Of a DNA stretch of 64,000 nucleotides, positions 20,184 to 57,980 are shown piece after piece. The position numbers were made by a program, and so were the translations under genes. Origin of the DNA: Ostrinia nubilalis. Taxonomy: Eukaryota > Arthropoda > Insecta > Lepidoptera > Crambidae. The notes beneath the pieces were generated by a model that worked only from the letters and a program-made list of their open reading frames with translations, searched no databases and had not been told where the DNA came from. Where the stretch lies: the NCBI RefSeq assembly GCF_963855985.1, contig NC_087118.1, forward strand, positions 10,808,501-10,872,500. Direction: 5' to 3'. The first letter of the stretch is position 1, and each line of letters starts with the position of its first letter.

Positions 20184-20400
20184 ATGCCTTTTTGCTCTGA
20201 GTGTTGTATCCAAGTAGATAGCAGGCGGTGGGTAGGCCACCTGCGCAGCGCCGCACACAAAGGTCGGTGCAACGCGTTGCAGGCGCAAGACTTTGATGGT
20301 GTGGTTGAACTTACAACTGCTTTCCAGGGCCGCATCGTGTCCTACAGGATCACTCCTACAGATGAGTACGTACACTCTTTGCCTGATATGTTTTTCAAAT
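20184..20400 (+). pseudogene. Polinton DNA polymerase B, piece 1 (N-terminus)
   Basis: Start Met at 20184. The N-terminus MPFCSECCIQVDSRRWVGHL has a C2H2-like pattern (C-x2-C, then two His). Then FQGRIVSYRI, the conserved strand seen at the head of Maverick polymerases. The frame runs into a LINE near 20,396-20,400 and resumes near 26,185. Polinton PolB is protein-primed and usually over 1,000 residues; here it is spread over five pieces. Confidence 0.8.
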
Positions 20401-20639
20401 TTCAAAAATTCAAAAAAAAAAAAAATTCAAAAATTCTTTATTTCTTTATAAAGGCTTACATAAATACTAATAGACGAAGCCTCCTTTTAGGCGTATGATT
20501 GCCTGTGCCAGGAGACAACGCTCTGCATAACTATAGGTGTTTTGTGTAAATTCTACTCAAAATCAATAATAAAGAAATATTCTATTATTCTACAATTATT
20601 ATATTTTTATAAATATAATGATGTGAATATTATGTGTAC

Positions 20640-20830
20640 TTACTGTAGGACGTGCTATGTGTATTATATTAGGAGTGTGCATTGTGTGTGTGTGTTATGT
20701 TAGTTTATAGTTTTGTATGTATGTTGCGTATGTATAGTATGGTGTATGTGTAGTGTTGTGTGTGTGTAGTGTAGTGTATGTATAGTGTAGTGTATGTGGA
20801 GTGTAGTATGGTATGTATGGTGCTTGTATT
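20640..20830 (-). repeat. TG-rich low-complexity tract in LINE 3' UTR
   Basis: Degenerate repeats of GTGTAGTGTAGTGTATGT type on the plus strand between the ORF2 stop and the tail. Confidence 0.7.
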
Positions 20831-20852
20831 CATATTTTATTGTAAAATCACT

Positions 20853-23847
20853 TCATGAATTAACCAAAGCCTCAACTTCGTCGTAGTCTAAGTCTTGTAA
20901 CCATTTTTTCATTGTAGATTTGCAATCTGAGAATGTTTTTTTATATAGATCAAGCTTTTTATTTATTTTATTATAGAGATGGGAAGATCGGAAATCAAAT
21001 TGCATTTGAGCAAACTTTGTTCTGAGTTTGGGAATGGCTGCTACTTTGAACTGACGAGCTCGTCTTTTATCTTCAACGCGAGGGTCGTATGTCAATGTTT
21101 TGTGTTTTTTTAATATTAACCCCAGGATATAAAGTTTTCTCACAGATAACAATTTGCTAGTATGGTAGATACCCTGGGTTGAAAAAGTTCTTTTTTTAAA
21201 ATACATTATTTTGAGTAATGCTCTTTGAGCTCTTTCGATCATCAGAAAACGCGTTTTATGGGCACCACCCCAGACTGAGATACAATATGTTGTTACCGAC
21301 TGAACCAGAGAAATGTATATTTCATTCAGTAAATTCCTAGTGGTATGTGCGTTATTTTCCAGATTTGTAGGAACAATGTGTCTCAGTGTCCGGAAGATCC
21401 AATTAAATTTACGTATCCTTGATACAGTCATTTCTATCTGTGGATACCATGAAAGCCTATGGTCCACCATCACTCCCAAATATTTTACAGACTCTACTTT
21501 GTTTATTGAGGGACAATTGCAGTTATGACTGTTTATCTCATTACAAGTATGTATTTTTATATTAAAGTCTTGATTGGGTTGAGAGTTATTGTAAATACTG
21601 AAACATACATAATTGGTTTTAGTTGTATTAAGGGTGAGGAGGTTGTTTTTCAGCCATGATGCGACCTTCATTAAACCGGTTTCTGCCGTTTTTTTTGTAT
21701 CAGCCCAGTTGGAGCCAGTGAAGACGATTGCAGTATCATCGGCATAGGAAAATATTTTTGCATTGTAAAGATTTAAGTTGCATAAATCATTTATATAAAT
21801 GAGGAATAGAGTGGGACCTAAAACACTCCCTTGTGGTACGCCACATGATACCTCTATGTCCTCACTCGTGCAGTCATCTATCTTTACTTTTTGCTTTCTA
21901 TTAGATAGGTAATTTTCAAAAATCAAGAGCTGTCTACCTCTAATGCCAATTTTTTCTAGCTTTTTAACGAGGATAGAAGAGGAGACTGTGTCGAAAGCCT
22001 TTTTGAGGTCTATAAACACTGTGAGACATTTCTGACCATTATCTAGGGACTGTGATATTAAAGTACTTAGGGAGGTAACTGCATCCTCAGTCGACATTTG
22101 CCGTCTAAAACCAAATTGATTTGGGGAGAGAATATTCTTAGCATCAAGATAGTTTAATAGTCTAATGTTTAAACAACTTTTCAAGAATTTTCGCAAGAAC
22201 TGGGAGAACCGAGATGGGTCTATAATTGTTGACGTTATCTTTTTCGCCACCTTTGTAAATCGGCGTGATTATAGATTTCTTTAAAGAGTCAGGGAAAATA
22301 CCCATCTTAAAACAAACATTAGCCAAATGTGTTACAATAGGAATAATTTCATTTCTAACGTGTTTGATAAATTTTGTAGAAATGTTGTCCCATCCTGGGG
22401 CGCTATCTGATTTAAGGTTCGTTATTATACTGTTTACCTCCTTGTGGTCAGTATCCAGCAGGACAAAGGATTGTTTCTGGTTAGATAGGGTGTTTAGATA
22501 ATTACTTATGTCATCATTATTTACAGATTGTTTTATTTCGCAAGCAAGCTGATTTCCAATATTTGCAAAAAACTCATTAATATAGTTAGCAGAGTCAAGA
22601 GTGGATGATTTAAGGCATGTAAGTTCAGAATTTAATTTATTTGATTTGCAAGTGTACGTTAGTGTTTTTATGTTTTTCCACAGAATTTTATTGTTGTTTA
22701 TGGAGTTTTCAATGAGTTGCCTTTCATATTTTCTTTTAAGTTTCTTTATTAGCTTGTTACAGTAATTTCTATATCGAGTAAATCTTATTTTTTTTATTTC
22801 GTTTAATGGATCATCTCTAGTTTCTCTTTGCAGCTTATTACGATTTCTAATACATTTCAAAATTCCATTTGTCATCCAAGGTTTTATTATTTGCTTGCTT
22901 TTAGGTATTTTTATCGTTATAGTATTTTCTTTTATCGACTCTTTTAGCCTCTGAATAAGATTATCCGATATATAACTAGGGTTGTCATTCAAGAGTAGTT
23001 GTGGTAGGTCTTTTTCTTTTAGATATTTAAGAGCACCTTCAAAATCGGTTCTCGTAGTTGTTTTAGGTGGGGTTTGGTTGCTTTTCAACCTGGCTATAGA
23101 AAGAAAAGTAGTAAGGTGATCGGTAATAGACGTGTTGATGATGGCAATGAAAGCGGAATGTCGCTTCTTATTTATTCTCAACATAAAGTGGTCAAGACAT
23201 CTTTTATCCCGAGTAGTCAGCATGTGACCGGGGAAAATACCATATGCTGTTAACATATCCAGGTAGAAGGTCCTGTTTTTAAACTCATATGATTGCTCGT
23301 TATCAGTGGGTGTTATGTTTATATTGATATCGCCTGCAATTGTAATATTTTTTTGAGAGCTTAAGGTGGCTAGATGACTTGACAGAGAGGTAATGAACGA
23401 TTCCGCAGAGTGATTGGATGGAGAGCGATAGATACCTAATATGGAGTTTTCGAGGATGTCTATTTGTAGACCAGAAGCGTGCGTAAGGTTTAGTTCAGCA
23501 ACGTTCGATGACAGTGTATTCTTAATGTAGACGACTACTCCATCATTCTGGTTTAGGTGACGAGTGGTTCTATAGGATTGATAGTTAGTTAATGTGGGCA
23601 CAGACTTGTCTGGATGTAGTCGGCATTCGGTCAATATTATAATGTCGACCTCAACATTAAAGGATGACAAATTAATTAGCAGATCGTCAAAGTTACAATA
23701 TATGCTTCTTATGTTCTGTGAAATAATATTGAGATCTGTTTTGTGTATGTAATGATGCTTAGTCAGATCATTCCAGTCACACTTGATAGATTTGGCTATG
23801 TTCATAATATTATCAATCTCACTTATGGCCTGTGTTCTGTCACCCAT
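20853..23847 (-). pseudogene. LINE ORF2: endonuclease and reverse transcriptase, one frameshift
   Basis: Two overlapping minus ORFs (23847-22162 and 22250-20853) form one protein. The N-terminal part is an APE-type endonuclease (LNIISQNIRSIYCNFDDLL, ILTECRLH, GVVVYIK, NITIAGDININITP, SITDHLTTFLSI). The RT has SAPGWDNISTKFIKHV, NNYRPISVLPVLAKILEKL, then after the frameshift NQFGFRRQMSTEDAV, FIDLKKAFDTV, GVPQGSVLGPTLFLIYINDL and the YADDTAIVF box. The break lies at 22162-22250 between EKLF and FRKFLKS. Motif style points to the Jockey/CR1 group; clade not certain. Confidence 0.88.
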
Positions 23848-24407
23848 TTAGGAGTACAATAGAGTACACTAGTTTTATCATAAGTAGGGTATATTTTGGT
23901 AAATTACATTCTGCCTTTGTTTGTTGGGTATAAAGACATAGTGAACCCAGGATTCTGGGTATTAATTCGATATTATGCATTGAGATAATTGGCTTGGTTT
24001 CATGTGTGGTTTGTATGGATTTTGTTTTGTATATGTTGTGGTGAGTGTCATTTGGCAATATTGTGTTGAGTGGCAATGTAAGTGTGTGTGTCTTGTGTGT
24101 TTGGTTTTTACTATAATACAGATGTTTCTTAAGTAACATTATATTATATAAGTAGATTTTTACAGAAACTATATTTAGTAGCAAAATAATACATTCATGT
24201 TTGAGAATATGAGCAATAATAGTACAATATGAACAATACGAGAGTAAAGTATTGTATATATTGTACGAATAGAGGCAATATAACATTCAGCAGATAAAAG
24301 TGACAAAAAACAGGTACATATGTTGCTATGTTTTTAGATAAGGAAATATTCAGATGCAGATTCGTTACTAGGTAATTGTTAACTAAAGGCAGCAGACCGA
24401 CATATAG

Positions 24408-24869
24408 TCAGGTACCCTGAATAAGCTGTTGAACCTGCGTCTCAGAATGTATTTTTATTATGGGAGAGGTCTCATTTTTTCTTACATATACAACACCGTA
24501 GGCGGTCCAGCAAAATTTGTATGATCGAGATTTCACTAAATCGCGAGCAAGGAAATGTAGTCGCGACGCTTTTGCAGTGAGTTGTTCAGTTACAAATATG
24601 GGGGTATCCTCGTTTGTCCGAAGGCCTAGATGCTTAGCACACAGTTTTGATTTATGCTTGATGTTGAAAGATTTACACGACTTAAGAATGTCTGTTTTAA
24701 CAATAACCGAAGCAGTCTCGACGATTATCGGCGAGTTTTGGGTTGCTTCGTTCCTACTACGAATCCTGTATATGTCACTAATGTCTCTTTTATCCATTTG
24801 AGATCCCACGGTTCCGGACAGTGTGACAACCATGTCCACTAAATCTTCTTTTGTTTCATTACTTCGTTT
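24408..24869 (-). pseudogene. LINE ORF1, C-terminal piece
   Basis: Encodes ETKEDLVDMVVTLSGTVGSQ, KRDISDIYRIRSRNE, PIIVETASVIVKTDILKSCK and KFCWTAYGVVYVRKNETSPI. This is the RNA-binding-like C-terminal domain found in LINE ORF1 proteins of moths, related to the baculovirus FP-protein fold. It is separated from its N-terminus by the 24877-25251 insertion. Confidence 0.75.
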
Positions 24870-24876
24870 AGGCACA

Positions 24877-25251
24877 CAGGTGGGGCTCGCTCGCCTTCGT
24901 GAGTTGCATAAGAACTAAGCTCAAGAACTGTATTGTTTGTTGTAGTGGTTGTAATTTTTTTAAGTATTGCATGAGTAGATATAGTATAGTGTAGTAATTA
25001 GCAGGAAACACAATGAATGCTCGGGCTGGGTGGCGCCATCTTGCTGTAACTTTAATAATCTTTAAAAATCTATTAAATTCCATACAAAAAACACCCAGTT
25101 ACTGCTATGGTAACGGTTGAAGTAGGCTGGTGCAACTGAGCCCGAAAAACTAAGGACGAGAACTATTGCCGACAAACTGTAATGCAGTTTGGCAAGTGTA
25201 TCTTTATATTTGATGTGTATCCTTTTGTGAACAATAAATAAAAAAAAAAAA
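24877..25251 (+). mobile_element. Retroposed sequence with poly-A tail, nested in LINE ORF1
   Basis: Flanked by AGGCACA (24870-24876 and 25252-25258). It ends in AATAAATAAAAAAAAAAAA, so it was copied from a polyadenylated RNA in plus orientation. It has no coding frame and no clear pol III boxes, so it is either a truncated LINE 3' end or a processed transcript fragment. Confidence 0.8.
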
Positions 25252-25258
25252 AGGCACA

Positions 25259-25698
25259 TTTTTGATCTCGAAATTAGACTTTCGACTGGTTCTTTGCAAA
25301 TCCTCAATTTTATCCTCTAGTATTGTTATATACTTTTTGTCTTCCTTCGCTTGTCCCTCTAGTCTAGTTATTTGCTTTTTAAAATCTTCATTTTGCGCCA
25401 TTAAAAAAGCAATGGACTCACGGATGTTTTCATTGGTTTTTTGTATGTCTTTAAGTGTGGGGTTAATATCTTTGGTGTGTTCCTCTATAACTGAAGTCAT
25501 CATACTTCTCATTTCCTCCTTAAAATTCTGTAAATCCAATGACCAATCCTCTTCCCTTCTTCTCTTGGTGCGAATGTTTACATTATGAGAGTCATCCATA
25601 CTTAAGTCTGGGGCCGACCCACCAAAGTGAACTGCGGCCGGTACCGGGTGCTCCTGACTGGATGCCGGTGATACGGGTGGTGTCCTTTTTAACGGCAT
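25259..25698 (-). pseudogene. LINE ORF1, N-terminal coiled-coil piece
   Basis: Starts MPLKRTPPVSPASSQEHPVP, followed by a basic patch RTKRRREEDW and a long coiled coil (KEEMRSMMTSVIEEHTKDIN to LEDKIEDLQRTSRK). The open frame runs on to 25204 but residues after KNVP belong to the inserted sequence. Same gene as 24408-24869. Confidence 0.75.
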
Positions 25699-25910
25699 TT
25701 TGTCTGTATATTATGTATCTGTATGTTATGTATGATAGTTAGAATAAACCTCCAATAGTCGGTCTTAAGATGCAAAGTTTGTACATTAACCGCAGTCACT
25801 GTCCGTAGCAGGTCCGTAGCACTTTCGTAGTTCTCGTAGCGTGATGAGGCGTAGCGCAAGTCGTAGCACTCGACGAAACAGGTCGCTTATTTCAACGCGG
25901 CGGCTCACTA

Positions 25911-25990
25911 CTCACGTGGCGCAGTTGGTACAGGCCAAAAGCAAGGCGGCGACGATCGAGCGGCCCCCGGTTCAAATCCCGCCAACACGC
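25911..25990 (+). repeat. tRNA-like sequence with A and B boxes
   Basis: TGGCGCAGTTGGT (about 25917-25929) matches the A-box consensus and GGTTCAAATCCCGC (about 25969-25982) the B-box. Length fits a tRNA-derived SINE head or a tRNA pseudogene. It lies on the strand opposite to the LINE, in its 5' region. No clean cloverleaf acceptor stem was found. Confidence 0.5.
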
Positions 25991-26185
25991 AAAAAGACCA
26001 GACGGTCTGACGCGACGTATGGGGGCTTCGAAGTCACCAGATGCACCGGCTCACAAGACGGGCGAAGTCCGAGGGCGCAGCCCGAGATTCTTGATTTATT
26101 CGTCAACACTCCGAGAAAAAATCACACACGTCCACACAGTACGACGCCCGGAGGCAGAGAGGACACTCACAGCACAGTATATTTT

Positions 26186-28221
26186 CTAAAATCGGTAACT
26201 TATTGAAACTCTCATTGAAAAAGCATATAAGTTTAAAAGTTAATTTCGAATATTTCGCTAATTTCTTTTTATTTAAGAATTTTTTAGTTACTCGAAATTA
26301 TGACTTTGATAAGATATTTGAAACACTTATTGATAGTATTAAAAATAAAGTTGAGGAATTCGAAGACCGCGATAGCGGCTGGACTTTTTTGAGAAATGTT
26401 TCCCTGGAAGTCAATATTAATAGGTACCATCCTCTTAGAGGGTCGGGTTCAACTTACGTTGATTTACCACTTACAATAAAAAAGAAAAAGGCGTGTATTA
26501 ATATCCGGAATAAGGATGAATATTGTTTTCTGTGGAGCATTGTTGCTGCTCTGTACCCGGTGAAAAAGAACGGTGATCGTACATCCTCATATCCAAACTT
26601 TGAACAGGTTCTAAACATTGATGGCATGTCATTCCCAGTAACGTTCAGCGATATCGCAAAGTTTGAAAATAATAATCTTGAAATAAGTGTAAATGTATAC
26701 GCTTTAAAAAATAATCGTACCGCAGTAGGACCTATATATAAATCAGAATTTAAGTCAAAAACTAGAACTAAAATTAACTTACTGTTAGTTGAAAATAATA
26801 TTAAATGTCATTTTGTTCTAATAAAAAACTTGTCTCGACTTGTCAGAAGTCAGATTACGAAACATCACGGAACACTCTATTTTTGCGATGATTGTTTGTT
26901 ATTTTTTACTACCGAAGTTAAACTGGAAAATCATACATGCAGTGGTGTAAGCATGGTACTGCCTGATAAAGGAACGTGTTTAGAATTCAAACATTTCGAA
27001 CGGAAGCAAGATGTTCCTTTTACTATCTATGCAGACTTTGAAACACTTCTTGTACCTTTTCAAGGGTGTGAACCTGATCCTACATCAAGTTTTACTTCTC
27101 AACGCCAAAAACACATTCCAGCAGCCTTTGCATATTATATAGTTTGCTCGTTTGATAATGATTTAAATAAATTCGTGCAATATCGAGGCAAAGATTGTGT
27201 TGAGATTTTTCTTGATAAACTTTATAAGGACATAAAAAAGTTTTATGATATCTTAGACAAGGAAATTGCAATGGAATTTGATGAAAACGATGCTGAAGCC
27301 TTTGCTCGTGCTGAAGTTTGTCACATTTGCAATAAATTATTGATTGTAGACAAAGTGAGAGATCACTGTCATCTCACAGGACGTTATCGAGGTGCTGCAC
27401 ATCAATACTGTAACCTAAGGTTCAGTGTGCCTAAATTAGTTCCAGTCTTTTTCCATAATTTAGCTGGTTATGATTGCCACTTGTTTATTAAAGAATTAGC
27501 AGAAAGTTTAGGACCTGTCAAAGTCATCGCTAAAAATAAAGAAAATTACGTATCTTTTACAAATTTTTTAAAGGTAAACAATGAAAAATATGCTCGAATT
27601 CGATTTGTTGATTCTTTTCAATTCTTAGGAACAAGTTTAGAAAAATTAGCCGGTGGATTAGAAAAAACTGATTTTACGTATTTGCAAAAGTTATATCCCA
27701 AAGAAAATGAATTTGTGTTATTAACGCGGAAAGGCGTGTACCCTTATGACCATATGAAACAATGGAAATCGTATTCCGAACGAAAATTACCTCATAAAAA
27801 ATGTTTCTATAATTCGTTAACTGATACAGACATTAGTGATGAAGATTATGCTCATGCTCAAAAGGTTTGGTCTGCTTTTAACATAAAAGATATGGGCCAG
27901 TACACAGATCTTTATCTAAAGACTGATGTATTACTATTGACAGATATTTTTGAAAACTTTCGACATGTTTGTAAAACAAATTATCAATTAGACCCTGCCT
28001 TTTACTTTACAGCCCCAAGTCTTTCATTTGATGCTATGTTACTTAAAACAGGCGTTCAGTTAGATTTATTAACAGACTTGGAAATCATTCGTTTTATACA
28101 GAAAGGGATAAGAGGAGGGATCTGTTTGTGTTCAACAAGATATGCTCAGGCAAATAATAAATACATACCTCATTATGATCCTAGCGAACCCGATTCTTTT
28201 CTGGTTTACATAGATTGCAAT
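26186..28221 (+). pseudogene. Polinton DNA polymerase B, piece 2 (exonuclease to motif A)
   Basis: Open from the LINE edge to the Gypsy insertion. Visible motifs: ExoI-type FTIYADFETLL; a cysteine/histidine cluster CHICNKLL with DHCHLTGRYRGAAHQYCN that resembles an endonuclease-VII-like zinc region; ExoII-type FHNLAGYDCHLFIKEL; ExoIII-type LYLKTDVLLLTDIF; and the start of polymerase motif A (VYIDCN) at the very end, where the LTR begins. All are as expected for Maverick PolB. Confidence 0.93.
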
Positions 28222-39704: not shown

Positions 39705-39706
39705 TA

Positions 39707-41125: not shown

Positions 41126-41141
41126 TATTATTGCTATTCAT
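41126..41141 (-). pseudogene. Conserved Polinton ORF, start codon piece
   Basis: ATG at 41141-41139 followed by AATAGCAATAA and the TA duplication. The ATG overlaps the major capsid stop codon as ATGA. Confidence 0.75.
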
Positions 41142-42960: not shown

Positions 42961-42997
<37 letters not shown>

Positions 42998-44194: not shown

Positions 44195-44337
44195 TTTATT
44201 AAACCAATTAATTTGAGAAATTCTTTATTGGTCTTTGTTAGCTTCTTTTTAAGCTGAAGCGGTCTGTCTTTGTGGAATGTTCTTTTAGAACTGAGTGGAG
44301 TGCGCAATGTAGAAGGATTTTTATTGAAGTTAATCAT
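44191..44337 (-). CDS. 48-aa basic protein between penton and major capsid genes
   Basis: A small complete ORF on the minus strand: ATG at 44337-44335, stop TGA at 44193-44191. It starts MINFNKNPSTLRTPLSSKRT and ends LKKKLTKTNKEFLKLIGLIK. It is strongly basic (about 13 Lys/Arg) with a helical end. Both its start and its stop overlap neighbouring genes by ATGA, which strongly suggests that it is real. By position and charge it could be a core or capsid-cement peptide; no function is proven. Confidence 0.7.
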   Translation of the reverse strand: MINFNKNPSTLRTPLSSKRTFHKDRPLQLKKKLTKTNKEFLKLIGLIK

Positions 44338-45004: not shown

Positions 45005-45034
45005 TATTATACTGACACTTTTATTAAACTTTTA

Positions 45035-45396
45035 TTAAATTTTCCAATAATTTCTTAAAAATTTCAGACACAAATGACCACAGTTTATTGTACCAAAGGC
45101 TTGATGTCGTACATAATTATAGTTTATAGATAAGTTACTAAAATATTTGACTAATTCTAATGGTGGTTTTAAATTACCAAAACTGTCATAATATTCAACA
45201 TAATCATTTTGCTTTACAAAGGCTACCCAATGTGTACCAGGATTTTTATTACTATCCAAATTCATGATTGCACATTCTATCTTCTTAGGTTTCGCAGGTA
45301 ATGTATCTCTCATGAATACACCACGAAAGAATGGAATATCACTAGCATGTTCTAATATATCCAAGTTAGTGAGCGCACGTCTAGGTAGCCGCTTAA
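45035..45396 (-). CDS. Polinton maturation protease (adenovirus-type cysteine protease)
   Basis: Open frame with IPFFRGVFMRDTLPAKPKKI, catalytic His in GTHWVAFVKQ, YYDSFGNLKPP and catalytic Cys in TINCGHLCLKFL. This is the Ulp1/adenain-like protease that would process capsid proteins. No ATG is seen at the expected start; the frame continues upstream through LIKRLPRRALTNLDILEHAS, and a CTG stands where a Met would be expected (about 45396). Either the start was mutated or it uses a non-ATG start. All else looks intact. Confidence 0.85.
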
Positions 45397-45451
45397 TCAG
45401 TTTTTTGAGGGATTGAGATATAAACCGGCTCCTTTTTTATGAGGCTTTATA
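45397..45451 (-). pseudogene. Polinton PLA2/hydrophobic protein, C-terminal piece
   Basis: Encodes KPHKKGAGLYLNPSKN and stops at 45399-45397. It is joined in frame to the 48130-48428 piece across a TA duplication. Confidence 0.7.
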
Positions 45452-48127: not shown

Positions 48128-48129
48128 TA

Positions 48130-48803
48130 TACAGTCCTTTTCCAAGGGCTACTGCTTCCATCATTCTGTTATGCCTTTCTGATTCCATTAGACTCTTTTG
48201 TGCGGCTTTAGAATCATTAACAGCTTTTACTATACCAGCTGCTCCTCCAGCAAGAGAACCTAAAGCCGATAACCCCGCAAAAATAGGAATAAGTGGTAAA
48301 AGTCCACCACATTTTGGAAGAGGAATACATCGAGGTAATCGTATTCCTTTTTTGTTAGCGAAAAGTTTTTTTGCAGCTGCATTAGCATATTTTATAGCAG
48401 AGTGATTATCTTTAGATTTAATTTTTTTTTATTCTGTTTTTATTTTCTTTATCCCTTTCTTAAATGAAGTTATACCTCGACCGGCTCTGATTTTGGCTTT
48501 CATCGCATTTTTAACTATCCATGAAGCAATTTTTTCTCCTCTTCCAACATCTTTTGATTTTAACCTTTTCTTAGCCATATTTAACAATTCTAAGTCAGCC
48601 TTTTGTCGAGCACCAGAATCTTTATTCAAATAAGCAATATCGTGGTGCATACAAGCCTCGTCCAATTTGTTAATCCCACGGTCGCCTTGAAGTAATCGTT
48701 TCTGAAGTTTAGTTCCTGGACCACAAAATTGATATCCAGGTAAGTGTAACTCAAACGGTAAATGATCTATCAATGTATTAATTATACCACTGCCTCCCTT
48801 CAT
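48130..48803 (-). pseudogene. Polinton phospholipase-A2-like protein with hydrophobic tail
   Basis: Starts at 48803 with MKGGSGIINTLIDHLPFELH. Then the PLA2 calcium-loop-like YQFCGPGTKL and active-site motif DEACMHHDIAYLN, as in parvovirus VP1 and Polinton PLA2 domains, which act on membranes during entry. A TAA at 48431-48429 follows KKIKTE, but the same frame continues with KSKDNHSAIKYANAAAKKLF, a Gly/Ala/Leu-rich membrane-like segment (GGLLPLIPIFAGLSALGSLA) and MMEAVALGKGLY. So one gene carries a nonsense mutation, and its last residues are beyond a TA element (45451-45397). Confidence 0.82.
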
Positions 48804-48879
48804 CGATTATCACAAAGTGAGTTATAGAGGAATTTATGTTTTATTTATATACACATGCACTTTTGTCAACCCAACTGTT

Positions 48880-49704
48880 TTATTTATCACTTAAGCCTAA
48901 CCATTTAACAAAAAGTTTGTTTCCTTTCCTTTTTATAACTTTTTCGATAAGATAAAGATCAGGCAGTGTCGTTTTTTGTAATTCATATCCGTAAAAAGAA
49001 CCAAGAATAATTTGATTGTGTTTATCTTCAATTTGATACGTTTGTGGATTTGTTTGTTTGATTTTTATGATACGAAAAATTTCGGTAGACCAATTAGGTG
49101 TATAACCTTTATAAAAATCTCCTTTGAATTTACTAATACGAACAAAGTCGCCAACTTGAAAAGATGATCGTTTACGCGTTTGTGGCTTTTGGCTTTTAAT
49201 AATATTAGATCTAACAACAATCTCATTGGAATCATTAACATTTATTGGTTTGAATTTTGTAACCCGATGCAGTGTTATTGTACTACAGTACAACTGCATC
49301 TAAATTATTTTTAAACCATTGATAACGACCGCATAAACTAAATATTTTGTAGAGATGTGATTTTATCGTCCTTATTACTCGTTCCACAATTGCAGCCTTT
49401 TTAATAGAGTATGTGGAATAATGATTTATGTTATAACTTTTTGTTAACTGTTTAAAACAATCGTTATAAAACTCTGTACCCAGATCTGTTTGCAAATTTC
49501 TAGGCTTTCGTGTTGATTCGGTAAATATACTTCTCATTGCATTCGTAACACTTTGTTTGGATTTAGATTTCAACGGTCTAACCCATACGTATTTTGAAAA
49601 AGCGTCAATAACAACTAGAACATATTTATATCCTTTATTAAATGATGAATATTTTTGAAAATCCATAAGGTCAGCTTGCCATAAATCATCTATCCCTTTA
49701 ATAA
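48880..49704 (-). pseudogene. Polinton integrase, catalytic core and chromodomain
   Basis: Retroviral-type integrase core: IKGIDDLWQADLMDFQKY, YVLVVIDAFSKYVWVRPLKS, LQTDLGTEFYNDCFKQL (DDE residues), ERVIRTIKSHLYKIF. After damage at about 49275-49300 (a TAG and a frame change around YNNT) the C-terminus continues with FQVGDFVRISKFKGDFYKGY and a chromodomain-like LYLIEKVIKRKGNKLFVKWL. Integrates the Polinton DNA. The N-terminal piece is at 51015-51095. Confidence 0.88.
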
Positions 49705-51014
49705 GGCATGTATTTAAATGATCTTTTTAAATTAGCAAAAATGACAAATAAAAAATCTAAATGGTCATCTATTTTAATGATTGATCCTCTTTCTTTGAGA
49801 CATAAAATAAATGAAATCGATCGATATTTTAATCTCTTTTGAACTACGCAAAAAATTATTGAGATGTAAAAATTATATCTGATCGTTACTTGTTGGTCCT
49901 CAAAAATAAAAGAAATGAGCACCAAATATTCAATATTGTGATACTTTTTTAAATAATTCGATTTGTATAAATTATTTTTTGTCTATATCAAATAATCTTC
50001 AAAATAATTATGTTATGGTACTTATTTTTATTAAGTTGTAGTCAAAGGATGGAAACTATTTAAAGGCACTTGATGTTCAAAGATTTATTTTTTATTAAAA
50101 AAGCATACTTAACACGTTCACACTGCGTTATCGGGTCGAATTGACCTTAGGTGCTGGATGCGTTGGTGCGGGATGGATATATTCGGTCTTTTCAGTAGTA
50201 CGAAAGATACATATTGTTTTGCAATTGTTTCGTCAAACGCAGTAAATATTTGAAAAAAAAAAAACTTATCAGGTCCTTACGACCCGATGTCGCACTAAAA
50301 GTAAACAAATATCGTATAGTGCTTTTATCGTGTCTAATCGACCCGTTGACAGATGACTTTATGGTCACTGATCACGGTCGAGATCGGTATAGGTACTAAG
50401 AGAAAATCAACCTTGCGATTTGAAAAAAATAAAGAGGTAAAAATTATGATGTCGGGTTCAGGGATGACAGAAGGAAGAAATTATTTTACATAGCGTCTCT
50501 AGTCCCAAACTAAGCAAAGCTTGTAATTTAAACAAACATGGCAATGTACCATTCTGCTTGCTCATTGGCCGCTAAGCCCTTGGCCAACTCAGTAACCAAT
50601 GACGAACGATTGTCACTCAACCACAAAGTACCGCGTAAATTAAAAGATATTTTTTAATTAAAAATATTAACCAATAATATTTTTAGTTAGATCAAATATA
50701 TTTTAAAGTTTAGTTATACATAGATCGAAATGTATTTATTAGGTGATCAATATTAAAAGGCAAACTTGGTATAAAAATCATCAAATTAACAAAATTAAAG
50801 ATCAATAACTAAAAAAGAGGATCAAATATTATTTTTGTTTACCAAATATTAAAAGAGTATGTTAAACATCATCATTCATAATTTATCCGTAGATCAACTA
50901 ATATAGACCCAATAATTAATATAAAGATAAAATATAATAAAATACATCATTTATTTTTAAAAGTGCACATACAAAAAAGATCAATTAGTTTTTAGAGGAT
51001 CAAATAATATTGTC
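49705..51014. mobile_element. Unclassified element with 11-bp target duplication
   Basis: Flanked by CCCTTTAATAA at 49694-49704 and 51015-51025; the integrase frame is open across the join. It is AT-rich and noncoding. The right 370 bp has about eight copies of RGATCAA-like words, and the left end has inverse forms (TTGATCCTC). Ends GGCATGTATTTAAATGATC and (inverse) GACAATATTATTTGATC are weakly alike. An 11-bp duplication would fit a Mutator-like element or a retroposon; class open. It holds a piggyBac-like zone near 50110 (TTAACACGTTCACACTGCG). Confidence 0.75.
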
Positions 51015-51095
51015 CCCTTTAATAATCGTATGTCGACGGATGAAATTTCTTCTCGCTGCTTTGTGTAGCTCGTTGACTATATCTTGTTTACTCAT
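51015..51095 (-). pseudogene. Polinton integrase, N-terminal piece
   Basis: ATG at 51095-51093, then SKQDIVNELHKAARRNF to the duplication. It overlaps the fibre-like stop codon (ATGAGTAA). The Arg-rich end before the catalytic core matches Polinton integrases. Confidence 0.8.
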
Positions 51096-51438
51096 TCTTG
51101 ATAGATTTTGCTGCAATCATCCTATCGATTTCTTCTTTCGTGTAATAAAATGTAGATAAATTATTAGTTGTTAATTTTTCCAAATTATTAAGATACTTCT
51201 TAATATTACTTTGAATGGTTTTCAATTCATTTTTTAAATCTTGAACACATTTATCCACATACTCTTTATTTACAGCCTCGTCATCGTTTTTAGGAGTTGG
51301 TAGTCCTTTTAATCTCGATGATTTTAAATCAAAGTCGCCTGTATCTGATCTTACTAATGTGTCATCTGTAAGAATATTAGTAAACTCAGACAGTCGTAAA
51401 CGCTTATGAACGTGATGACCAAATTTATCTATATTCAT
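51088..51438 (-). CDS. Fibre-like coiled-coil protein of Polinton
   Basis: 116 residues: MNIDKFGHHVHKRLRLSEFT, then DFDLKSSRLKGLPTPKNDDE, AVNKEYVDKCVQDLKNELK and a coiled coil. The pattern LPTPKNDDEAVNKEYVD resembles phage tail-fibre segments. Such proteins occur in Polintons and may be attachment spikes. Its ATG overlaps the previous stop by ATGA. Intact. Confidence 0.7.
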   Translation of the reverse strand: MNIDKFGHHVHKRLRLSEFTNILTDDTLVRSDTGDFDLKSSRLKGLPTPKNDDEAVNKEYVDKCVQDLKNELKTIQSNIKKYLNNLEKLTTNNLSTFYYTKEEIDRMIAAKSIKNE

Positions 51439-52058
51439 TGCCGTCTGCTCGGCTTCTGTAGTGTAATGGTACTGCCAAACCCTCCTGTTGGAAGCTTTAT
51501 ATATTTTATATCTTTTATGATACCAGCTTCATGCAATTCCTCTATTATTGAATAAATTTCATTTTGTACTCCAGTGTTACCAGCTGCCCATGATCCAAAT
51601 AGTAATTTTAACCTTTCCACTAATTCATTTGGATCATCCCAATAAACCAAATCAGTATCCTTCTTAACTTCTTTCAAAATATCGACACCTTCACCTCGTG
51701 ATAGACTTTCTACACTACTTGTGTGACTTCTAGAGAACTTAAACAAAGGTTTGATCACGTTCATATATTTAAATCCCTTGTTACTGTTTATTGGCTTTGA
51801 TGGATCACAGTTTCGTTTGTGTGCATTGGTATCTATAAGTACTAATTTATAATTTTGTAAGTCCTCATTCGTAATAATTTTTAAATCTGGGATTTTTTTG
51901 TACAACAATTCTTTTAAGCCTGGAGTCTTTTTTAGGCTACGGTTTCCAATTTTTAAAATGCGGTCATCATCATGAACACGCGTATTACCGAGCATCAGCT
52001 TTCCCTTTACATTTCTAATACCATAAGGTACATCACTCATCACTTCAGATGACACCGA
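51435..52058 (-). pseudogene. Conserved acidic Polinton protein, C-terminal piece
   Basis: Encodes MSDVPYGIRNVKGKLMLGNT, ILKIGNRSLKKTPGLKELLY, then VYWDDPNELVERLKLLFGSW and NEIYSIIEELHEAGIIKDIK. The DDPNELVERL and IIEELHEAGII blocks are conserved in Polinton-encoded proteins of unknown role. It is separated from its N-terminus by an RTE LINE. Confidence 0.78.
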
Positions 52059-54548
52059 CCATGATAAAGAATCGTTATTGGTACTCGGTGACGGCCCATT
52101 TTACCGTTGTGATGGGGGACTTCAACGCGAAGCTGGGTAGACGAAGCGATAATGAGCTGAAAGTGGGGCAATTTGGGTATGGAGAGAGGAACGCACGTGG
52201 CCAACTGCTGGCTGGCTTTATGGAGAGGGAGGGCCTCTTTATGATGAACTCCTTCTTCAGGAAGCCAAAACAGCGAAAGTGGACATGGCTGCATCCCAAT
52301 GGCGCTATAAAAAATGAGATCGACTTCATCTTGTCGACGAAGAAGCATATATTCAATGATGTCTCTGTGATCAACTCGGTCAAAACAGGAAGCGATCACC
52401 GAATGGTAAGAGGCACATTGAATATCAGACCCAAGCTCGAGAGGCGTCGACTGATGAAGTCTACGCTCCGCCCAGCGCCCATCCAACTCCAAAACCCCGA
52501 AAGCTTTCAGCTCGAGTTGCAAAATCGTTTCGAATGCCTAGGAGACTGCGAAAATGTGGACGAATACAATGACAGGTTCGTGGAAATTGTCCAAACGACT
52601 GGGTCTAAGTTCTTTAAAACCCGTCGTCCAAAAGGAACCAAAAAGATCTCTGACCTCACCAATAAACTTATGGAAGAGAGACGAAACTTGGTTCTGCAGT
52701 CCTCTGAAGATGCTGCTCAGTATCGGCGTCTTAACAGACAGATCTCCAAGTCTTTGACTCGCGATCTACGCCAATTTAATACAGATCGTATTGAAGAGGC
52801 GATTGAGCGTAACAAAGGCTCTAAAGTGTTCGCTAGGGATCTGTCTGTTGGCCAAAGTCAACTGACCAAGCTGAAGACCGAGGATGGCAGAGACATCTCG
52901 TCGGGGCCTGAGTTATTGGAAGAGGTTGAGAAGTTCTACGGACAATTATACACGAGTGTACGTACACCTGTCACAAATCTAGCCGAAGACCCAAGAGCTA
53001 GACTGACCCGACACTACACCGAAGATATCCCGGACGTCAGCCTGTACGAGATTAGAATGGCTCTCAAACAGCTGAAAAACAACAAGGCACCGGGTGATGA
53101 TGGAATCACGGCTGAGCTTCTGAAAGCAGGCGGAACGCCGGTACTAAAGGCTCTTCAGAGGCTGTTCGATTCCGTCATACTTGAGGGAAAAACGCCTACG
53201 GCATGGCACAGAAGTGTGGTGATACTTTTTTTCAAAAAAGGCGACAAAACCTTGTTGAAAAATTATAGACCCATCTCACTTCTGAGCCATGTCTACAAGC
53301 TGTTTTCGAGAGTCATCACGAATCGTCTCGCACGCAGGCTCGACGACTTCCAGCCTCCCGAACAAGCCGGTTTCCGAAAAGGCTTTAGTACCATAGACCA
53401 CATACATACGCTACGGCAGATTATACAGAAGACCGAGGAGTATAATCAGCCACTTTGTCTGGCGTTTGTGGACTATGAAAAAGCCTTCGACTCGATCGAG
53501 ACCTGGGCAGTGCTACAGTCTCTCCAACGGTGCCAAATTGACTATAGATACATCGAAGCGCTGAAGGGCTTGTACGAAAACGCCACAATGTCGGTCCGCC
53601 TCCAGGATCAGAACTCGAAACCTATCCAGTTGCAGCGAGGGGTGAGACAGGGAGATGTCATATCTCCGAAACTGTTCACCACCGCCCTGGAAGATGTTTT
53701 CAAGCTTCTGGACTGGAGCGGATTCGGCATAAATATCAACGGCGAGTATATCACACACCTTCGTTTCGCGGACGATATCGTAGTCATGGCTGAGACCGTG
53801 GAGGACCTAAACACAATGCTCGATGGCCTCAGTAGAGCCTCTCAACAAGTGGGTCTTAAAATGAACATGGACAAGACAAAAATTATGTCAAATGCCCGTG
53901 TTGTACCCACTCCTCTGAAGGTTGGAGACACTACACTCGAACTTGTTGACAATTATGTATACCTGGGACAAACAGTCCAGTTAGGTAGGTCCAACTTCGA
54001 GAAAGAGGTTAATCGTCGAATCCAACTCGGCTGGGCAGCGTTCGGGAAGCTTCGCGAAATTCTCACGTCCGAAATACCGCAGTGTCTCAAGACAAAAGTA
54101 TTTGACCAGTGTGTGTTGCCAGTGATGGTGTATGGCTCTGAGACGTGGTCGCTTACTATGGGCCTCATAAGAAGGCTCAAGGTCACCCAAAGAGCGATGG
54201 AGCGTGCTATGCTCGGAGTTTCCCTGCGTGATCGAATCAGAAATGAGGAGATCCGTAGGAGAACCAGAGTGACTGACATAGCCCGCAGAATCGCTAAAAT
54301 CAAGTGGCAGTGGGCGGGGCACATAGCTCTAAGAGCTGATGGCCGCTGGGGCAGGAAAGTTCTTGAGTGGCGACCACGAGCTGGAAGACGTAGCGTGGGC
54401 AGGCCTCCCACTAGGTGGACCGACGATCTGGTAAAGGTCGCGGGAAGTACCTGGATGCAAGCGGCGCAGGACCGGTCTTTGTGGAAATCCTTGGGGGAGG
54501 CCTTTGTCCAGCAGTGGACGTCTTTCGGCTGAAACGAACGAACGAACT
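52059..54548 (+). mobile_element. RTE-clade LINE, 5'-truncated
   Basis: One 827-codon frame preceded by almost nothing, ending in TGAAACGAACGAACGAAC (a GAAC microsatellite tail as in RTE elements). Inserted in the acidic Polinton gene; no clear target duplication. The 5' end lies in the endonuclease domain. Confidence 0.88.
52085..54532 (+). CDS. RTE endonuclease-reverse transcriptase (N-terminus missing)
   Basis: Open from the left edge. Endonuclease C-terminal half: FTVVMGDFNAKLGRR and GSDHRMVRGTL. RT: NNKAPGDDGITAELLKAGG, LLKNYRPISLLSHVYKLFSR, EQAGFRKGFSTIDHIHTLRQ, LAFVDYEKAFDSIETW, GVRQGDVISPKLFTTALEDV and the FADD box THLRFADDIVVM. The C-terminal WAGHIALRADGRWGRKVLEW and VGRPPTRWTDDLVKVAGS are typical of moth RTE elements. 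It cannot be fully active without the N-terminal endonuclease residues. Confidence 0.9.
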   Translation, partial: SVTAHFTVVMGDFNAKLGRRSDNELKVGQFGYGERNARGQLLAGFMEREGLFMMNSFFRKPKQRKWTWLHPNGAIKNEIDFILSTKKHIFNDVSVINSVKTGSDHRMVRGTLNIRPKLERRRLMKSTLRPAPIQLQNPESFQLELQNRFECLGDCENVDEYNDRFVEIVQTTGSKFFKTRRPKGTKKISDLTNKLMEERRNLVLQSSEDAAQYRRLNRQISKSLTRDLRQFNTDRIEEAIERNKGSKVFARDLSVGQSQLTKLKTEDGRDISSGPELLEEVEKFYGQLYTSVRTPVTNLAEDPRARLTRHYTEDIPDVSLYEIRMALKQLKNNKAPGDDGITAELLKAGGTPVLKALQRLFDSVILEGKTPTAWHRSVVILFFKKGDKTLLKNYRPISLLSHVYKLFSRVITNRLARRLDDFQPPEQAGFRKGFSTIDHIHTLRQIIQKTEEYNQPLCLAFVDYEKAFDSIETWAVLQSLQRCQIDYRYIEALKGLYENATMSVRLQDQNSKPIQLQRGVRQGDVISPKLFTTALEDVFKLLDWSGFGININGEYITHLRFADDIVVMAETVEDLNTMLDGLSRASQQVGLKMNMDKTKIMSNARVVPTPLKVGDTTLELVDNYVYLGQTVQLGRSNFEKEVNRRIQLGWAAFGKLREILTSEIPQCLKTKVFDQCVLPVMVYGSETWSLTMGLIRRLKVTQRAMERAMLGVSLRDRIRNEEIRRRTRVTDIARRIAKIKWQWAGHIALRADGRWGRKVLEWRPRAGRRSVGRPPTRWTDDLVKVAGSTWMQAAQDRSLWKSLGEAFVQQWTSFG

Positions 54549-54941
54549 CGGTGACGATTGAAGAGATTTAAATGAGTTTTCATGTACATCATAATCCACC
54601 GAGGGCGATGTAGTAAGGGTTTTATTAGATGTTTTGCAAACATCTATATTATCTAAATCCTCTTCATCATCGTCGCTTTCTTCATAATCTTCAGCAGAAG
54701 TATTTGATGCTTCACTTTCACTGTATTTAGTTCTTTTAGCTTCTGAGTTTTGCTCCGATCCTTCATTTATAAGACGTTTTTCATCAGTTTGGTTTGTTAG
54801 TAGTTTCAGCGGGTCAATGATAGGTTTAAATATCGTGTCCAAAGCCATATCATTTGAATTTTTTACATCTTTAATCATTTCTACTTTTCTTTTTACAGCT
54901 GCAGCAGATTTTACTATTTGTTCCTTTAAGTTTCGTTCCAT
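54549..54941 (-). pseudogene. Conserved acidic Polinton protein, N-terminal piece
   Basis: Likely start ATG at 54941-54939 (MERNLKEQIVKSAAAVKRKV), then EMIKDVKNSNDMALDTIFKP and a very acidic run (SAEDYEESDDDEEDLDNIDV). The frame reaches the RTE edge and agrees with the 52058 piece. Full product would be about 330 residues. Confidence 0.75.
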
Positions 54942-55019
54942 TATTAAGATTCCTGCTCTATTTGACTTCTCCAATTAAACTGAATGTTTGATAACTTAAC
55001 ATCTATACTTATAAAAAGT

Positions 55020-55195
55020 TTAGTCCATTACTATGAATGTATCAAACTTCATTCGATAACAGCCTTTGTTTCGTTCACAATCTTTATTGATAACCACATA
55101 ACTGTAAGGTTTACTCCATACAGTTGAGCACATTTCACGAAACTGACCATGACATGTCAGACCCAACATGTTCGTCGTAAACGTGTCTTAGATTT
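55020..55195 (-). pseudogene. Polinton packaging ATPase, C-terminal piece
   Basis: Minus-strand frames give DINLRHVYDEHVGSDMSW and, after one frame change, FREMCSTVWSKPYSYVVINK with a stop at 55022-55020. This is the C-terminus of the FtsK/HerA-type Polinton ATPase. It is cut from the rest by a 2-kb element. Confidence 0.75.
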
Positions 55196-55200
55196 ATATC

Positions 55201-57259
55201 GCCCATTTGCGACGACACTGTGACATCTCGACATATACGATTTTTTGTTTTACCGAAATTCTGAACCGCGATCTTGCGTTCTTTTATCTCCAAAAACAGG
55301 GTATTTGTTACTCCAAAAACAACAATACTATGAGAGAAAGAGACAAAATATTACGTTATAGCGCTGGCTCGTTCGGCGATCTAGTTGGCTTCGACACTGT
55401 GACAGTTCAGTTGCCACCTGCGCTTTGAGATGTGAGGTGCTCTTCGTTTTTAAGAAAAACGTGACATCTCGAGGATACCGCGGTATTGATGACAAAGGTA
55501 AGTTTTTAAAATATTTTTATTTTATTCGACAATGTGGCACGTCATAGTTATCACAGTGTTCTTCTAAAACAAAAAGCAAAGTAAAAGATAAATTATTTAT
55601 ATGTCACGTTATTCTTGTAAGAAAATCGAAGTATCATCGGGACATCTTAACTTGTAACGTTGTAGATGATGAAAATTTTTCCTATATTGGAAATATGTTG
55701 TAGGTCATTTGTTGATGTTCTGTTATTGCAGAATCATGTTATTGAAATTGAATGGTATATCTACTTGTCACGTTGTATACGCTAAACAGTAATACTAAAC
55801 TCCAGATATCATTACAGATGGGGACTAGCAATGCAAAAAAGCAAAGGTTAACATTTGTGGCGATGCACTGCCTGAAGGAATTCCACAACCTAATCCGACA
55901 ACATGACTAACAGCGCTATGCGAGCGCTGTGAAAGGGTCTCTTTGAGCTACAATAACGTCGGAACTAATATGAGTAGATATAGACTGATAAACATACATT
56001 CGTTTTGAAGAATAGTTCAAATACTAGAAATACAGTGCAAATAAAACATACTTATACGACTGTCTGTTTTTACAGACACAACAAGCAAAATATTTTATAT
56101 TATCATACAATAGCCTTAGATTAGCTTAATCTAAGACCCCAGATATTTATTTATTTATTATTATGTAATTATTCAATGTTACTTAGCTGTATTGGCTATG
56201 TTTTGCTTTCTGCAAAAAAAGGTATTTTAATGTTTTAATATAATTACAGATCATCAGCAATTGATGGAATTTTATCGCATCTTGCCCAAATTTACTTTGG
56301 CGGGCGCAACATTGTTTTGTAAGTATAATAATATTGCAATAGGTACAACTATTGCAGAAAAACTACGCCAATAAAATGGCTACATTATTTATAAAATAAT
56401 AGTGGTTGTTATTTTTCACTATTAATACATTATTTAAATATCTTTTATAAATTTACTTTTAAATAAGTATAAAAAATTAAAAGACCCTAAAGGTACCAAA
56501 ATGTCGCTTTTTTGCCATTTTATGCGCCGGAGACGGCGATTTTTGCGTTGATAGTTTTAGGATTAAATTGTCATAACTAGTCTGTTAAAAAACATCTATT
56601 TACTAACCTAGTAGGTACCTACAATTTTTTTTTCTGCATACATACATACTTAGTACCTACAGTTTCTCTTCCTGTGTTTTTTTTGTAGTAGTTTACGAGG
56701 TTTTACTTTTGAGAGTTTTTCGTTTATTTTGATAAGTATTAGTTTTTAGAATAAGAAAACTTAATGTGAACATAAATATTGTATGTATACAACTGTCTGT
56801 CTACTTAGATAATATTTTTATAAGTGAAATTTAACATGGCAAAGCGAAATATTCGCCTGTTCCAATAATTACCTCATTTTTACTGATTGTAATGTTAGTA
56901 AAATAAAAAAAAATTTTCAAGATCAACGTTTTATCTAAATAATGACTTATATAAATATATTTTTTTATATCATCTACAACGTGACAACTGAACTTACCAT
57001 CTTCAAAATATTATTTTTTACTAGAACAACGTGATAAGTTGTCTCTTTTTTTTTCAATCGCTATAATGTCATCAATTTAGACGCAAAGTTATGTCTTACT
57101 ATAAATATTTAAATTCATTAATAGTTAATCTTTAAACGTTTCATACACAATTAGGTAATCCTAACCTTATTTTAAGAGTTATGGTCATTCAAAAGTTAAA
57201 AAGTCGATTTCTGTAAAACCACTGTTTTTGATATATCACAGTGTCGTCGCAAATGGACG
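55201..57259. mobile_element. 2-kb element with CATTTGCGACGACACTGTGA terminal inverted repeats
   Basis: Left end at 55204-55223 and the exact inverse at 57236-57255 are 20-bp inverted repeats. Flanks show ATATC at 55196-55200 and 57260-57264. No transposase. Subterminal zones repeat an ACAACGTGACAA-like word in both directions, including ATCATCTACAACG near both ends. Holds a diverged piece of the foldback family (about 55,908-56,080). Superfamily unknown. Confidence 0.82.
55908..56080 (+). repeat. Diverged piece of the 8.7-kb foldback family
   Basis: Shares with the right arm at about 9255-9400 the blocks CTTTG, TACGTCGRAACTAATA-like sequence, ACATTCGTTTTG, CAAATACTA and GCAAATAAAACATAC, in the same order. 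Confidence 0.7.
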
Positions 57260-57895
57260 ATATCATCTTGCTTAAACAATATGATAAGATTTGCATTATC
57301 TCTTACCAGTTGCTTAGGTATTTTAGTATAAGTTTGATTCATATAAAAACAATCAATGTTTTTATGCCGACCCATGGCGAAATAATCGCGTATATTGTTT
57401 TGATTTTCACAAGCAACATCGTCAAATATGATAATCGACTCAGGCAATGCTTCGTGGGGACTTAAAATTTCACTATTATGATTATACTTGTTATAAGATG
57501 TGCCTGCAACCTTGTCCAATACTTTTTCTAAAAATACGTACTTGGTATAAAGACTTAGAATACGGGTTAGTACACATACAGGTTACGAAAACGTGGTCCA
57601 TCCTTATGTAACAATAAACTGATAACTAAATTGGTCTTCCCACAGTTCGGACCGCACACGATACTACGTATAGTATTTGGCAATAATTTCCCGTGACGCT
57701 TAAGCTCGTTCGATGCTTCAGGACAGACGCATTCCAATTTAAGTGATTCTTTTTGTTTCAGAAATTTCATAACAGAATTTTTAACTTGACTGTTGTGATC
57801 GGTGGATTTCAAAGAACTGAGGACAATATACTCACGTCGATGGTTAAAAGATGTAGTTCGAAAAATGTTCATATTCATCGTGCATGGTTTACTTA
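57260..57895 (-). pseudogene. Polinton packaging ATPase, main piece
   Basis: Likely start at the Met of MNIFRTTSFNHRREYIV (about 57880). Walker A reads SIVCGPNCGKTNLVISLLLH and Walker B SIIIFDDVAC; a later NANLIILFKQDD is the typical end of the core. A frame change lies at about 57535-57570 between LYVY and LDKVAGTS. The residues after KQDD in the open frame (VHLRRHCDIS) come from the inserted element. The gene pumps DNA into capsids. Confidence 0.88.
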
Positions 57896-57900
57896 CGATC

Positions 57901-57980
57901 GTGTTATTGGGCGATCTAACGCACAGAGTGAGGTCGCAAACTGCGACCGAACGAATGTGAGTTAGAACGCCCAATAACAC
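57901..57980. repeat. 80-bp hairpin at Polinton right side
   Basis: Perfect 13-bp stem GTGTTATTGGGCG (57901-57913) with CGCCCAATAACAC (57968-57980), then TCTAAC/GTTAGA, and an inner GGTCGCA/TGCGACC stem. It lies just upstream of the ATPase start and may be part of the Polinton terminal repeat, or a tiny foldback element. Confidence 0.8.

What the first reader, a model, noticed from the sequence alone, without database searches (positions are those of the whole stretch)
20184..57980. A shattered Polinton/Maverick: about 26 kb of younger insertions inside about 11-12 kb of virus-like element
Reading all frames and ignoring insertions gives an ordered set of PolB, ATPase, integrase, PLA2, protease, penton, major capsid and small conserved ORFs. 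At least ten insertions of different classes hit it, and most fall inside coding sequence. A host-like region would not tolerate this, so the Polinton has served as a neutral landing zone. A gene-by-gene annotator would probably miss most of it.
Basis: partly seen in the sequence, partly recalled or inferred. Interest (0 to 1): 0.9.

Follow-up and report, generated by a model that had tools for sequence, protein, structure and literature searches.

The report
Shattered Polinton with swapped polymerase
A virus-like Polinton in what is likely a corn-borer moth genome has been cut apart by at least ten younger insertions, mostly of recognisable mobile elements, and compared with its closest relative its capsid genes and its DNA polymerase gene show different depths of descent, likely because such elements exchange polymerase genes; it is otherwise a known kind of genomic fossil.

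Summary
Relatives in the same genome show the uninterrupted target at ten insertions: six in a copy at 93-98% identity, two in a copy on contig C22 at 98-99%, two in a PolB at 70-74%. Ten of twelve catalogued insertions lie in coding sequence. Corrections: the element reaches left to at least 11384, past another copia insertion (12911-19342); its right end is 57986; the penton call rests mainly on position. The 'neutral landing zone' reading is weak: flanks also hold young transposons, and 12 of 20 fetched copies on this contig show no capsid-block interruption over 300 bp. The contig is likely W-chromosomal (C31+C32: 49 of 126 scored capsid hits, 3.5% of bases); Maverick enrichment on the Ostrinia W is published (PMC11064298). 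Beyond the finding: against the closest capsid relative all ten capsid-side pieces compared have dS 0.05-0.22, while all four PolB pieces compared are at or near synonymous saturation. Capsids of equal family score sit beside PolBs of three types. This points to exchange of the polymerase module.

The parts
11384..12910 (+).
   Evidence: L037/L036 (C22 copy) 98.5-98.7% over 11736-12911; L035 70-85% over 11381-12450
12911..19342 (+). insertion 0: copia-type LTR element, itself holding repeats at about 15.3-17.45 kb
   Evidence: LTRs 12910-13042 and 19210-19342 identical over 133 bp; RVT_2 at 17319-18473; uninterrupted target in L036 with 6-bp overlap
19343..20183 (+). Polinton left arm, exon-like ORF upstream of PolB
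   Evidence: 99% to L036
20184..20395 (+). PolB N-terminal block
   Evidence: Loxostege PolB P0121, 60% aa; L036 99%
20396..26171 (-). insertion 1: LINE (ORF2 20853-23847, ORF1-like 24411-24914) plus further pieces
   Evidence: RVT_1 6.9e-31, Baculo_FP_2nd 1.9e-12; uninterrupted target at L036 1126/1127, no target duplication
26172..28221 (+). PolB main block
   Evidence: 76% aa to Loxostege PolB; 97-99% copies in own genome
28222..33845 (-). insertion 2: Ty3/Gypsy-type LTR element; LTRs without a substitution, one 8-bp indel; flanked by CAAT; holds a hAT fragment at 32767-33282
   Evidence: RVT_1, RNase H, rve, RVP; LTR alignment; hAT PF05699; junction in L035
33846..34211 (+). PolB block
   Evidence: L035 74% nt
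34212..36926 (.). insertion 3: terminal-inverted-repeat element, flanked by TA
   Evidence: inverted ends 34214-34249/36924-36889, 86%; junction in L035
36927..37554 (+). PolB block (read in two frames)
37555..37712 (-). insertion 4: about 160 bp, LINE-3'-end-like, ends approximate
   Evidence: gap between adjacent homolog residues (P0124, P0142) and between the L035 and L028 matches
37713..37940 (+). PolB C-terminal block
38195..38430 (.). insertion 5: short retroposon-like repeat, ends approximate, no uninterrupted target seen
   Evidence: similar stretches in L011 and L014
38564..38977 (+). small basic ORF on the PolB side
   Evidence: likeness to L028 8820-9218 (-) seen by eye only; no Pfam
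39229..39706 (-). ORF39 (conserved, unknown function)
   Evidence: 98.1% to L028 7734-8212
39707..41128 (.). insertion 6: TIR element near the start of ORF39, flanked by TA
   Evidence: inverted ends 88%; uninterrupted target in L028
41129..42276 (-). major capsid protein, double jelly roll, codons from about 24 on
   Evidence: PF21738 E 9e-105; 98.7% aa to an Ostrinia furnacalis protein
42277..44118 (-). insertion 7: copia-type LTR element inside MCP, flanked by GTTTG
   Evidence: LTRs 42276-42449/43945-44118, 98.85% over 174; RVT_2; uninterrupted target
44119..45461 (-). MCP N-terminus, penton-position gene, protease, end of PLA2 gene
45462..48127 (.). insertion 8: TIR element in the PLA2 gene
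   Evidence: inverted ends over 86 bp at 81%; uninterrupted target
48128..49704 (-). PLA2-domain gene and most of integrase
   Evidence: PF08398, rve; L028 94.2%
49705..51014 (.). insertion 9: unclassified 1.3 kb insertion in integrase, 11-bp duplication
   Evidence: uninterrupted target
51015..52093 (-). integrase N-end, small ORF, C-part of gene X
   Evidence: L028 96.8%
52094..54545 (+). insertion 10: LINE in gene X, flanked by ACTCGGTGACG
   Evidence: RVT_1 7.8e-35; uninterrupted target
54546..55200 (-). gene X N-part and ATPase C-end
   Evidence: L028 95.9%
55201..57261 (.). insertion 11: TIR element in ATPase
   Evidence: inverted ends 91%; uninterrupted target; a 98.9% copy of its end adjoins an ORF39 piece in L001
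57262..57986 (-). ATPase N-part and Polinton right end with an inner palindrome
   Evidence: L028 92.9%, whose match ends at the same terminus

Best explanation
This is a decayed Polinton/Maverick of the lepidopteran adintovirus-like group that has been interrupted by at least ten younger insertions, probably because it sits on a non-recombining W-type chromosome, and whose polymerase module and capsid module likely come from different parents. Shown: gene pieces, order, uninterrupted targets in relatives, repeated target bases at most junctions, and the contrast in synonymous divergence between modules. Inferred: the element once integrated through its rve integrase and replicated with its PolB; loss of recombination and selection then let insertions pile up over a short time, as LTR pairs with zero to two substitutions suggest. 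The PolB module was probably exchanged by recombination between co-resident Polintons before the insertions, with a break near the stop of ORF39 (39228).
For: Gene families. Uninterrupted targets: L028 matches seven window pieces collinearly at 93-98% with small overlaps at six junctions; L036 gives two more, L035 two more. Young insertions: Gypsy LTRs one indel and no substitution, copia LTRs 2 differences in 174, 0 in 133 and 0 in 125. Contig: 49 of 126 scored MCP hits on C31+C32, 17.35 of 495.4 Mb; 0 of 126 homeodomain hits there. Modules: ten capsid-side pieces compared, all dS 0.05-0.22 against L028; four of six PolB blocks compared, all pS 0.72-0.90 against L035, which continues the same element; the window's PolB has 97-99% copies elsewhere. 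Same tail-to-tail layout in L028/L035 and, by coordinates, at C22 twice and C9 once.
Against: The left terminus was not found, so full length, terminal inverted repeats and the element's own target duplication are untested. W identity rests on MCP enrichment and the literature; the homeodomain gap is weak, since at least six other contigs (C5, C16, C17, C19, C22, C28) also have no listed homeodomain hit. No male/female coverage. The MCP DNA search in the genome did not complete, so capsids of the 97%-PolB copies were not compared at DNA level; only equal family scores were seen, and PolBs of the 72% and 68% types sit beside MCPs with other scores (mostly 361.9-365.9 and 354.6 bits), so pairing is not free. 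Insertion 1 shows no target duplication. Penton, protease and ATPase are weak by profile.
Confidence: 0.85

Rival explanations
1. Two different Polintons lie side by side by chance: the PolB half belongs to one and the capsid half to another.
For: PolB half and capsid half differ in divergence from L028/L035; one Polinton beside or in another occurs on this contig (L028).
Against: PolB and MCP stand tail to tail, PolB piece and MCP domain 2.9-3.0 kb apart, at C22 twice and at C9 with 97% PolB, and in the same layout in L028/L035 with another PolB.
Confidence: 0.08
2. No exchange: PolB simply evolves much faster than the capsid genes.
For: Among the 120 best hits listed, MCP relatives are 67-99% and PolB relatives 45-76% identical.
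Against: The contrast is at synonymous sites (dS 0.05-0.22 against saturation or dS 2.5), which protein constraint does not explain; PolBs of three types sit beside MCPs of equal score.
Confidence: 0.07
3. The Polinton is a preferred target: its sequence or chromatin attracts insertions.
For: The same families hit several Polintons: the element of 55201-57261 also adjoins a Polinton ORF39 piece in L001, and the palindromic repeat 8685-9738 lies in gaps of or beside Polinton genes in L015, L025 and L029. Eight of 20 fetched C31 copies are interrupted in the capsid block.
Against: Flanking DNA also holds young transposons; 12 of the 20 show no such interruption.
Confidence: 0.1
4. Assembly artefact joining unrelated repeats.
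For: Repeat-rich contig; reads not available here.
Against: Six junctions resolve with small overlaps against one collinear relative.
Confidence: 0.02

Closest known systems
Polinton/Maverick (polintoviruses; PMC4028283, passages seen)
   Same: PolB, rve integrase, packaging-type ATPase, adenovirus-type protease, double-jelly-roll MCP, a penton-position gene next to MCP
   Different: Split by at least ten insertions; left end not found
Adintoviruses (PMC11071296, passages seen; the defining 2021 paper is not held)
   Same: A 73% MCP relative is named hexon of Spodoptera moth adintovirus 1; the integrase of L028 has a weak C-terminal chromodomain; mixed hexon/PolB clade pairings are described in that paper
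   Different: Here the mixed pairing is between close elements within one genome, and this copy is broken
Maverick-rich W chromosome of Ostrinia furnacalis (PMC11064298; abstract, part 1 of 2 of Results and passages seen)
   Same: Maverick enrichment with a larger share of LINE, Copia and Gypsy on W
   Different: The parts seen do not describe single copies, nested insertions or PolB exchange

Membership tests
Polinton/Maverick | type B DNA polymerase of the Polinton kind | tested here: met
   homologs; protein priming itself not tested
Polinton/Maverick | RVE integrase | tested here: met
   PF00665 E 3.9e-14
Polinton/Maverick | double-jelly-roll MCP | tested here: met
   PF21738 E 9e-105
Polinton/Maverick | packaging ATPase | tested here: inconclusive
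   PF04665 0.0056 in window, 2e-4 in intact relative, both below cut-off; collinear position
Polinton/Maverick | adenovirus-type cysteine protease | tested here: inconclusive
   PF00770 0.0048, below cut-off
Polinton/Maverick | penton (single jelly roll) | tested here: inconclusive
   PF01686 0.0064 sub-threshold, 3 of 21 relatives weakly, no PDB hit, model pLDDT 36
Polinton/Maverick | terminal inverted repeats (recalled) and 15-20 kb length (read in PMC4028283) | tested here: inconclusive
   right end shared with L028; no inverted partner between 17000 and 20200; L028 terminus against the whole window gives only this right end, its own palindrome and short matches, one at 2078-2101
Adintovirus | integrase with C-terminal chromodomain | tested here: inconclusive
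   PF00385 9.7e-5 in L028, just below cut-off; C-end of the window's broken gene gave no family
Adintovirus | OTU-like domain at PolB N-terminus | not tested
   feature read in PMC11071296; the Pfam scan of two PolB pieces lists no OTU, no dedicated search made

The most novel reading that the evidence does not exclude
Within one moth genome, Polintons with one and the same capsid module carry at least three polymerase genes, two of them 25-30% away from the window's type in DNA, so these elements trade replication genes as cassettes on a recent time scale, and a W-type chromosome stores and shreds the products.
Probability: 0.65. Interest if true: 0.6.

Novelty: new member of a known kind. 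Interest (0 to 1): 0.36.

Why it matters
It is a well-resolved case in which a large virus-like element can be traced through ten insertions because uninterrupted relatives survive in the same genome, and it suggests that gene-by-gene annotation would undercount Polintons on such chromosomes. The capsid/polymerase contrast makes exchange of modules among co-resident Polintons measurable within one genome: 17 PolB-MCP pairs with coordinates can be read.

Tried and rejected
Relatives in viral contigs, by one MCP and by a profile: none confirmed among 8 and 123 pattern matches. The best-scoring MCP loci turned out to be distant (63-68% nt over MCP). Terminal repeat search 17000-20200 against 57700-62000 gave nothing usable. 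Structure models of the penton-position protein and of gene X were too poor to use (mean pLDDT 36 and 44); no fold search was made. PHROGs listed endonuclease VII likeness in PolB and a few weak families for PLA2 and ATPase. ARAGORN found 0 tRNA genes. One codon comparison (gene X) was out of frame; it was dropped and redone. The penton profile found no PDB chain, the MCP profile one unrelated chain at E 0.077. In one search L033 was scored as uninterrupted because its chain held only two genes; one search shows its MCP in two stretches over 8 kb apart, so I count it as interrupted (8 of 20, not 7).

Rejected: that the Polinton begins at 20184; that the PolB position marks an inversion peculiar to the window (L028/L035 have the same layout; the C7 copy L011/L012 has another).
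Full report
What was checked. The window is G000:C31:10808501-10872500 in an unnamed 495-Mb genome of 52 contigs. Its MCP is 98.7% identical over 379 residues to an uncharacterized protein of Ostrinia furnacalis, so the host is likely an Ostrinia moth; the genome itself carries no name here.

Genes. Stop-to-stop pieces were scanned one by one. PolB is on + in six blocks from 20184 to 37940. On - follow, from right to left, ATPase, gene X, a small ORF, integrase, PLA2-domain gene, protease, a penton-position gene, MCP and ORF39. The same order stands uninterrupted in L028, with PolB tail to tail beyond it (end of L028 and L035). Profile support is strong for MCP, PLA2 and integrase, and below cut-off for ATPase, protease and penton.

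Insertions. The window pieces 57986-57262, 55200-54546, 52093-51015, 49704-48128, 45461-44119, 42276-41129 and 39706-39228 map collinearly to L028 1219-8212, and the six junctions overlap by 3, 11, 11, 12, 6 and 2 bp in the BLAST ends, which are upper bounds for the target duplications. Searches show inverted ends, LTRs and repeated target bases. L036, from a copy on C22, covers two more junctions: the copia element 12911-19342 and the LINE of 20396-26171. L035 covers the Gypsy element and the TIR element inside PolB. Two smaller insertions (about 37.55-37.71 and 38.2-38.4 kb) are less sure. Of the twelve, ten lie in coding sequence, judged by the gene limits in L028 and the PolB homologs; since most of a Polinton is coding, this is little more than expected. 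Sizes inside 20184-57986 add up to about 26.3 kb, leaving about 11.5 kb (my sums from the table of parts).

Limits of the element. The left arm runs at 98-99% identity to the C22 copy from 20183 back to 19343 and, beyond the copia insertion, from 12911 back to 11736, and more weakly (70-85%, L035) to about 11381. There it meets other repeats. The right end is 57986, where the L028 match also ends. No left terminal repeat was found.

State of the genes. Besides the insertions, ATPase, integrase, the penton-position gene and PolB each carry at least one frameshift relative to open frames in relatives. MCP has no internal stop in its long piece and differs from L028 by 5 amino acids in 378 codons against 34 synonymous changes; this is a pairwise count, not assigned to one side. 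LTR pairs carry 0 substitutions (Gypsy, apart from one 8-bp indel), 2 in 174, 0 in 133 and 0 in 125. So the insertions are young, and the element was probably under selection until not long before.

Surroundings. Left of the element lie a copia element with identical LTRs and a long open frame (3187-7498), a palindromic repeat (8685-9738) and other repeats; right of it a piggyBac-type transposase. Of 126 scored MCP hits 35 lie on C31 and 14 on C32, which make 3.5% of the bases; the next contigs have 7 each. Only 126 of 212 candidates were scored, so counts are lower bounds and favour well-kept copies; the window's own MCP is not among the listed ones. None of 126 homeodomain hits (150 of 188 candidates scored) lies on C31 or C32; about four would be expected by length, many of the 126 come from a few clusters, and at least six other contigs (C5, C16, C17, C19, C22, C28) also have none, so this is weak support. 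A published W chromosome of O. [quoted passage not shown] I therefore read C31 as likely W. Among 20 fetched C31 copies, chosen from the best MCP scores and seen over 10 kb each, 7 show capsid-block insertions over 300 bp by chain, none more than two, and an eighth, L033, has its MCP in two stretches over 8 kb apart. In L015, L017 and L033 only part of the block was in reach. The window copy has six such insertions. Autosomal copies could not be fetched for comparison.

Two histories in one element. Between the window and L028 the ten capsid-side coding pieces compared have dS 0.05-0.22. Between the window and the PolB of that same element the four blocks compared (of six) have pS 0.72-0.90, with dS 2.5 in one and saturation in three. 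DNA identity is 98% in ORF39, no blastn match to L028 is found directly past its stop, and PolB lies at 70-74%. The window's PolB main block has five other copies at 97-99% (C22 twice, C9, C32, C31) plus a 98% fragment on C3. For three of those five an MCP hit lies 2.9-3.0 kb away in the same layout; for the other two none is listed. MCPs beside the 97%-type PolB (3 of 3 listed), beside the 75%-type (3 of the 4 with an MCP hit nearby; the fourth is a truncated MCP about 9 kb off) and beside the eleven 70%-type copies with matches from base 424 on (10 of 11) have the same family score, 355.8 bits. Equal score is not proof of identity, and the direct DNA comparison did not complete. Against free exchange: PolBs of a 72% type sit beside MCPs of mostly 361.9-365.9 bits and PolBs of a 68% type beside MCPs of 354.6 bits, so some pairings look stable. 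Mixed PolB/hexon pairings are known between adintovirus clades (PMC11071296, passages seen). In the listings no title or abstract start describes this among close copies within one genome; apart from the papers named here, those papers were not read.

Verdict. A real, well-resolved case of a known kind: a Polinton broken by many insertions on a likely W chromosome. The polymerase/capsid contrast is the part a specialist would want to follow.

Noticed in passing
L028:1-1340: The Polinton of L028 ends directly beside the start of another Polinton's MCP gene in opposite orientation, so it likely inserted into that element: Polinton in Polinton.
   Followed up: partly
L011/L012 versus L028/L035: Two gene layouts in one genome: PolB upstream of and collinear with ATPase on C7, PolB tail to tail with the capsid block in L028/L035 and the window.
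   Followed up: partly
window 12300-12960 and 19519-19953: Left arm looks like a spliced gene with repeated short exon-like units bounded by AG/GT signals, upstream of PolB and kept in the C22 copy; splicing not tested.
   Followed up: no
window 32767-33282: hAT C-terminal dimerisation piece (PF05699, 4.7e-11) lies inside the Gypsy element between its 5' LTR and a DUF7041 ORF.
   Followed up: no
window 8685-9738: About 1.05-kb near-palindromic repeat, also in gaps of or beside Polinton genes in L015, L025 and L029 at 89-96%.
   Followed up: partly
window 2006-2101: AGTAGTA followed some 70 bp later by a 24-bp match to the inner part of the Polinton terminus; possibly an end of this or another Polinton.
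   Followed up: no
window 58720-60184: piggyBac-type transposase in two frames (PF13843) just right of the element.
   Followed up: no
G000: Groups of MCP hits with identical scores on many contigs (e.g. 361.7, 355.8, 354.6 bits), mostly with open frames, suggest several recent Polinton bursts in this genome.
   Followed up: no
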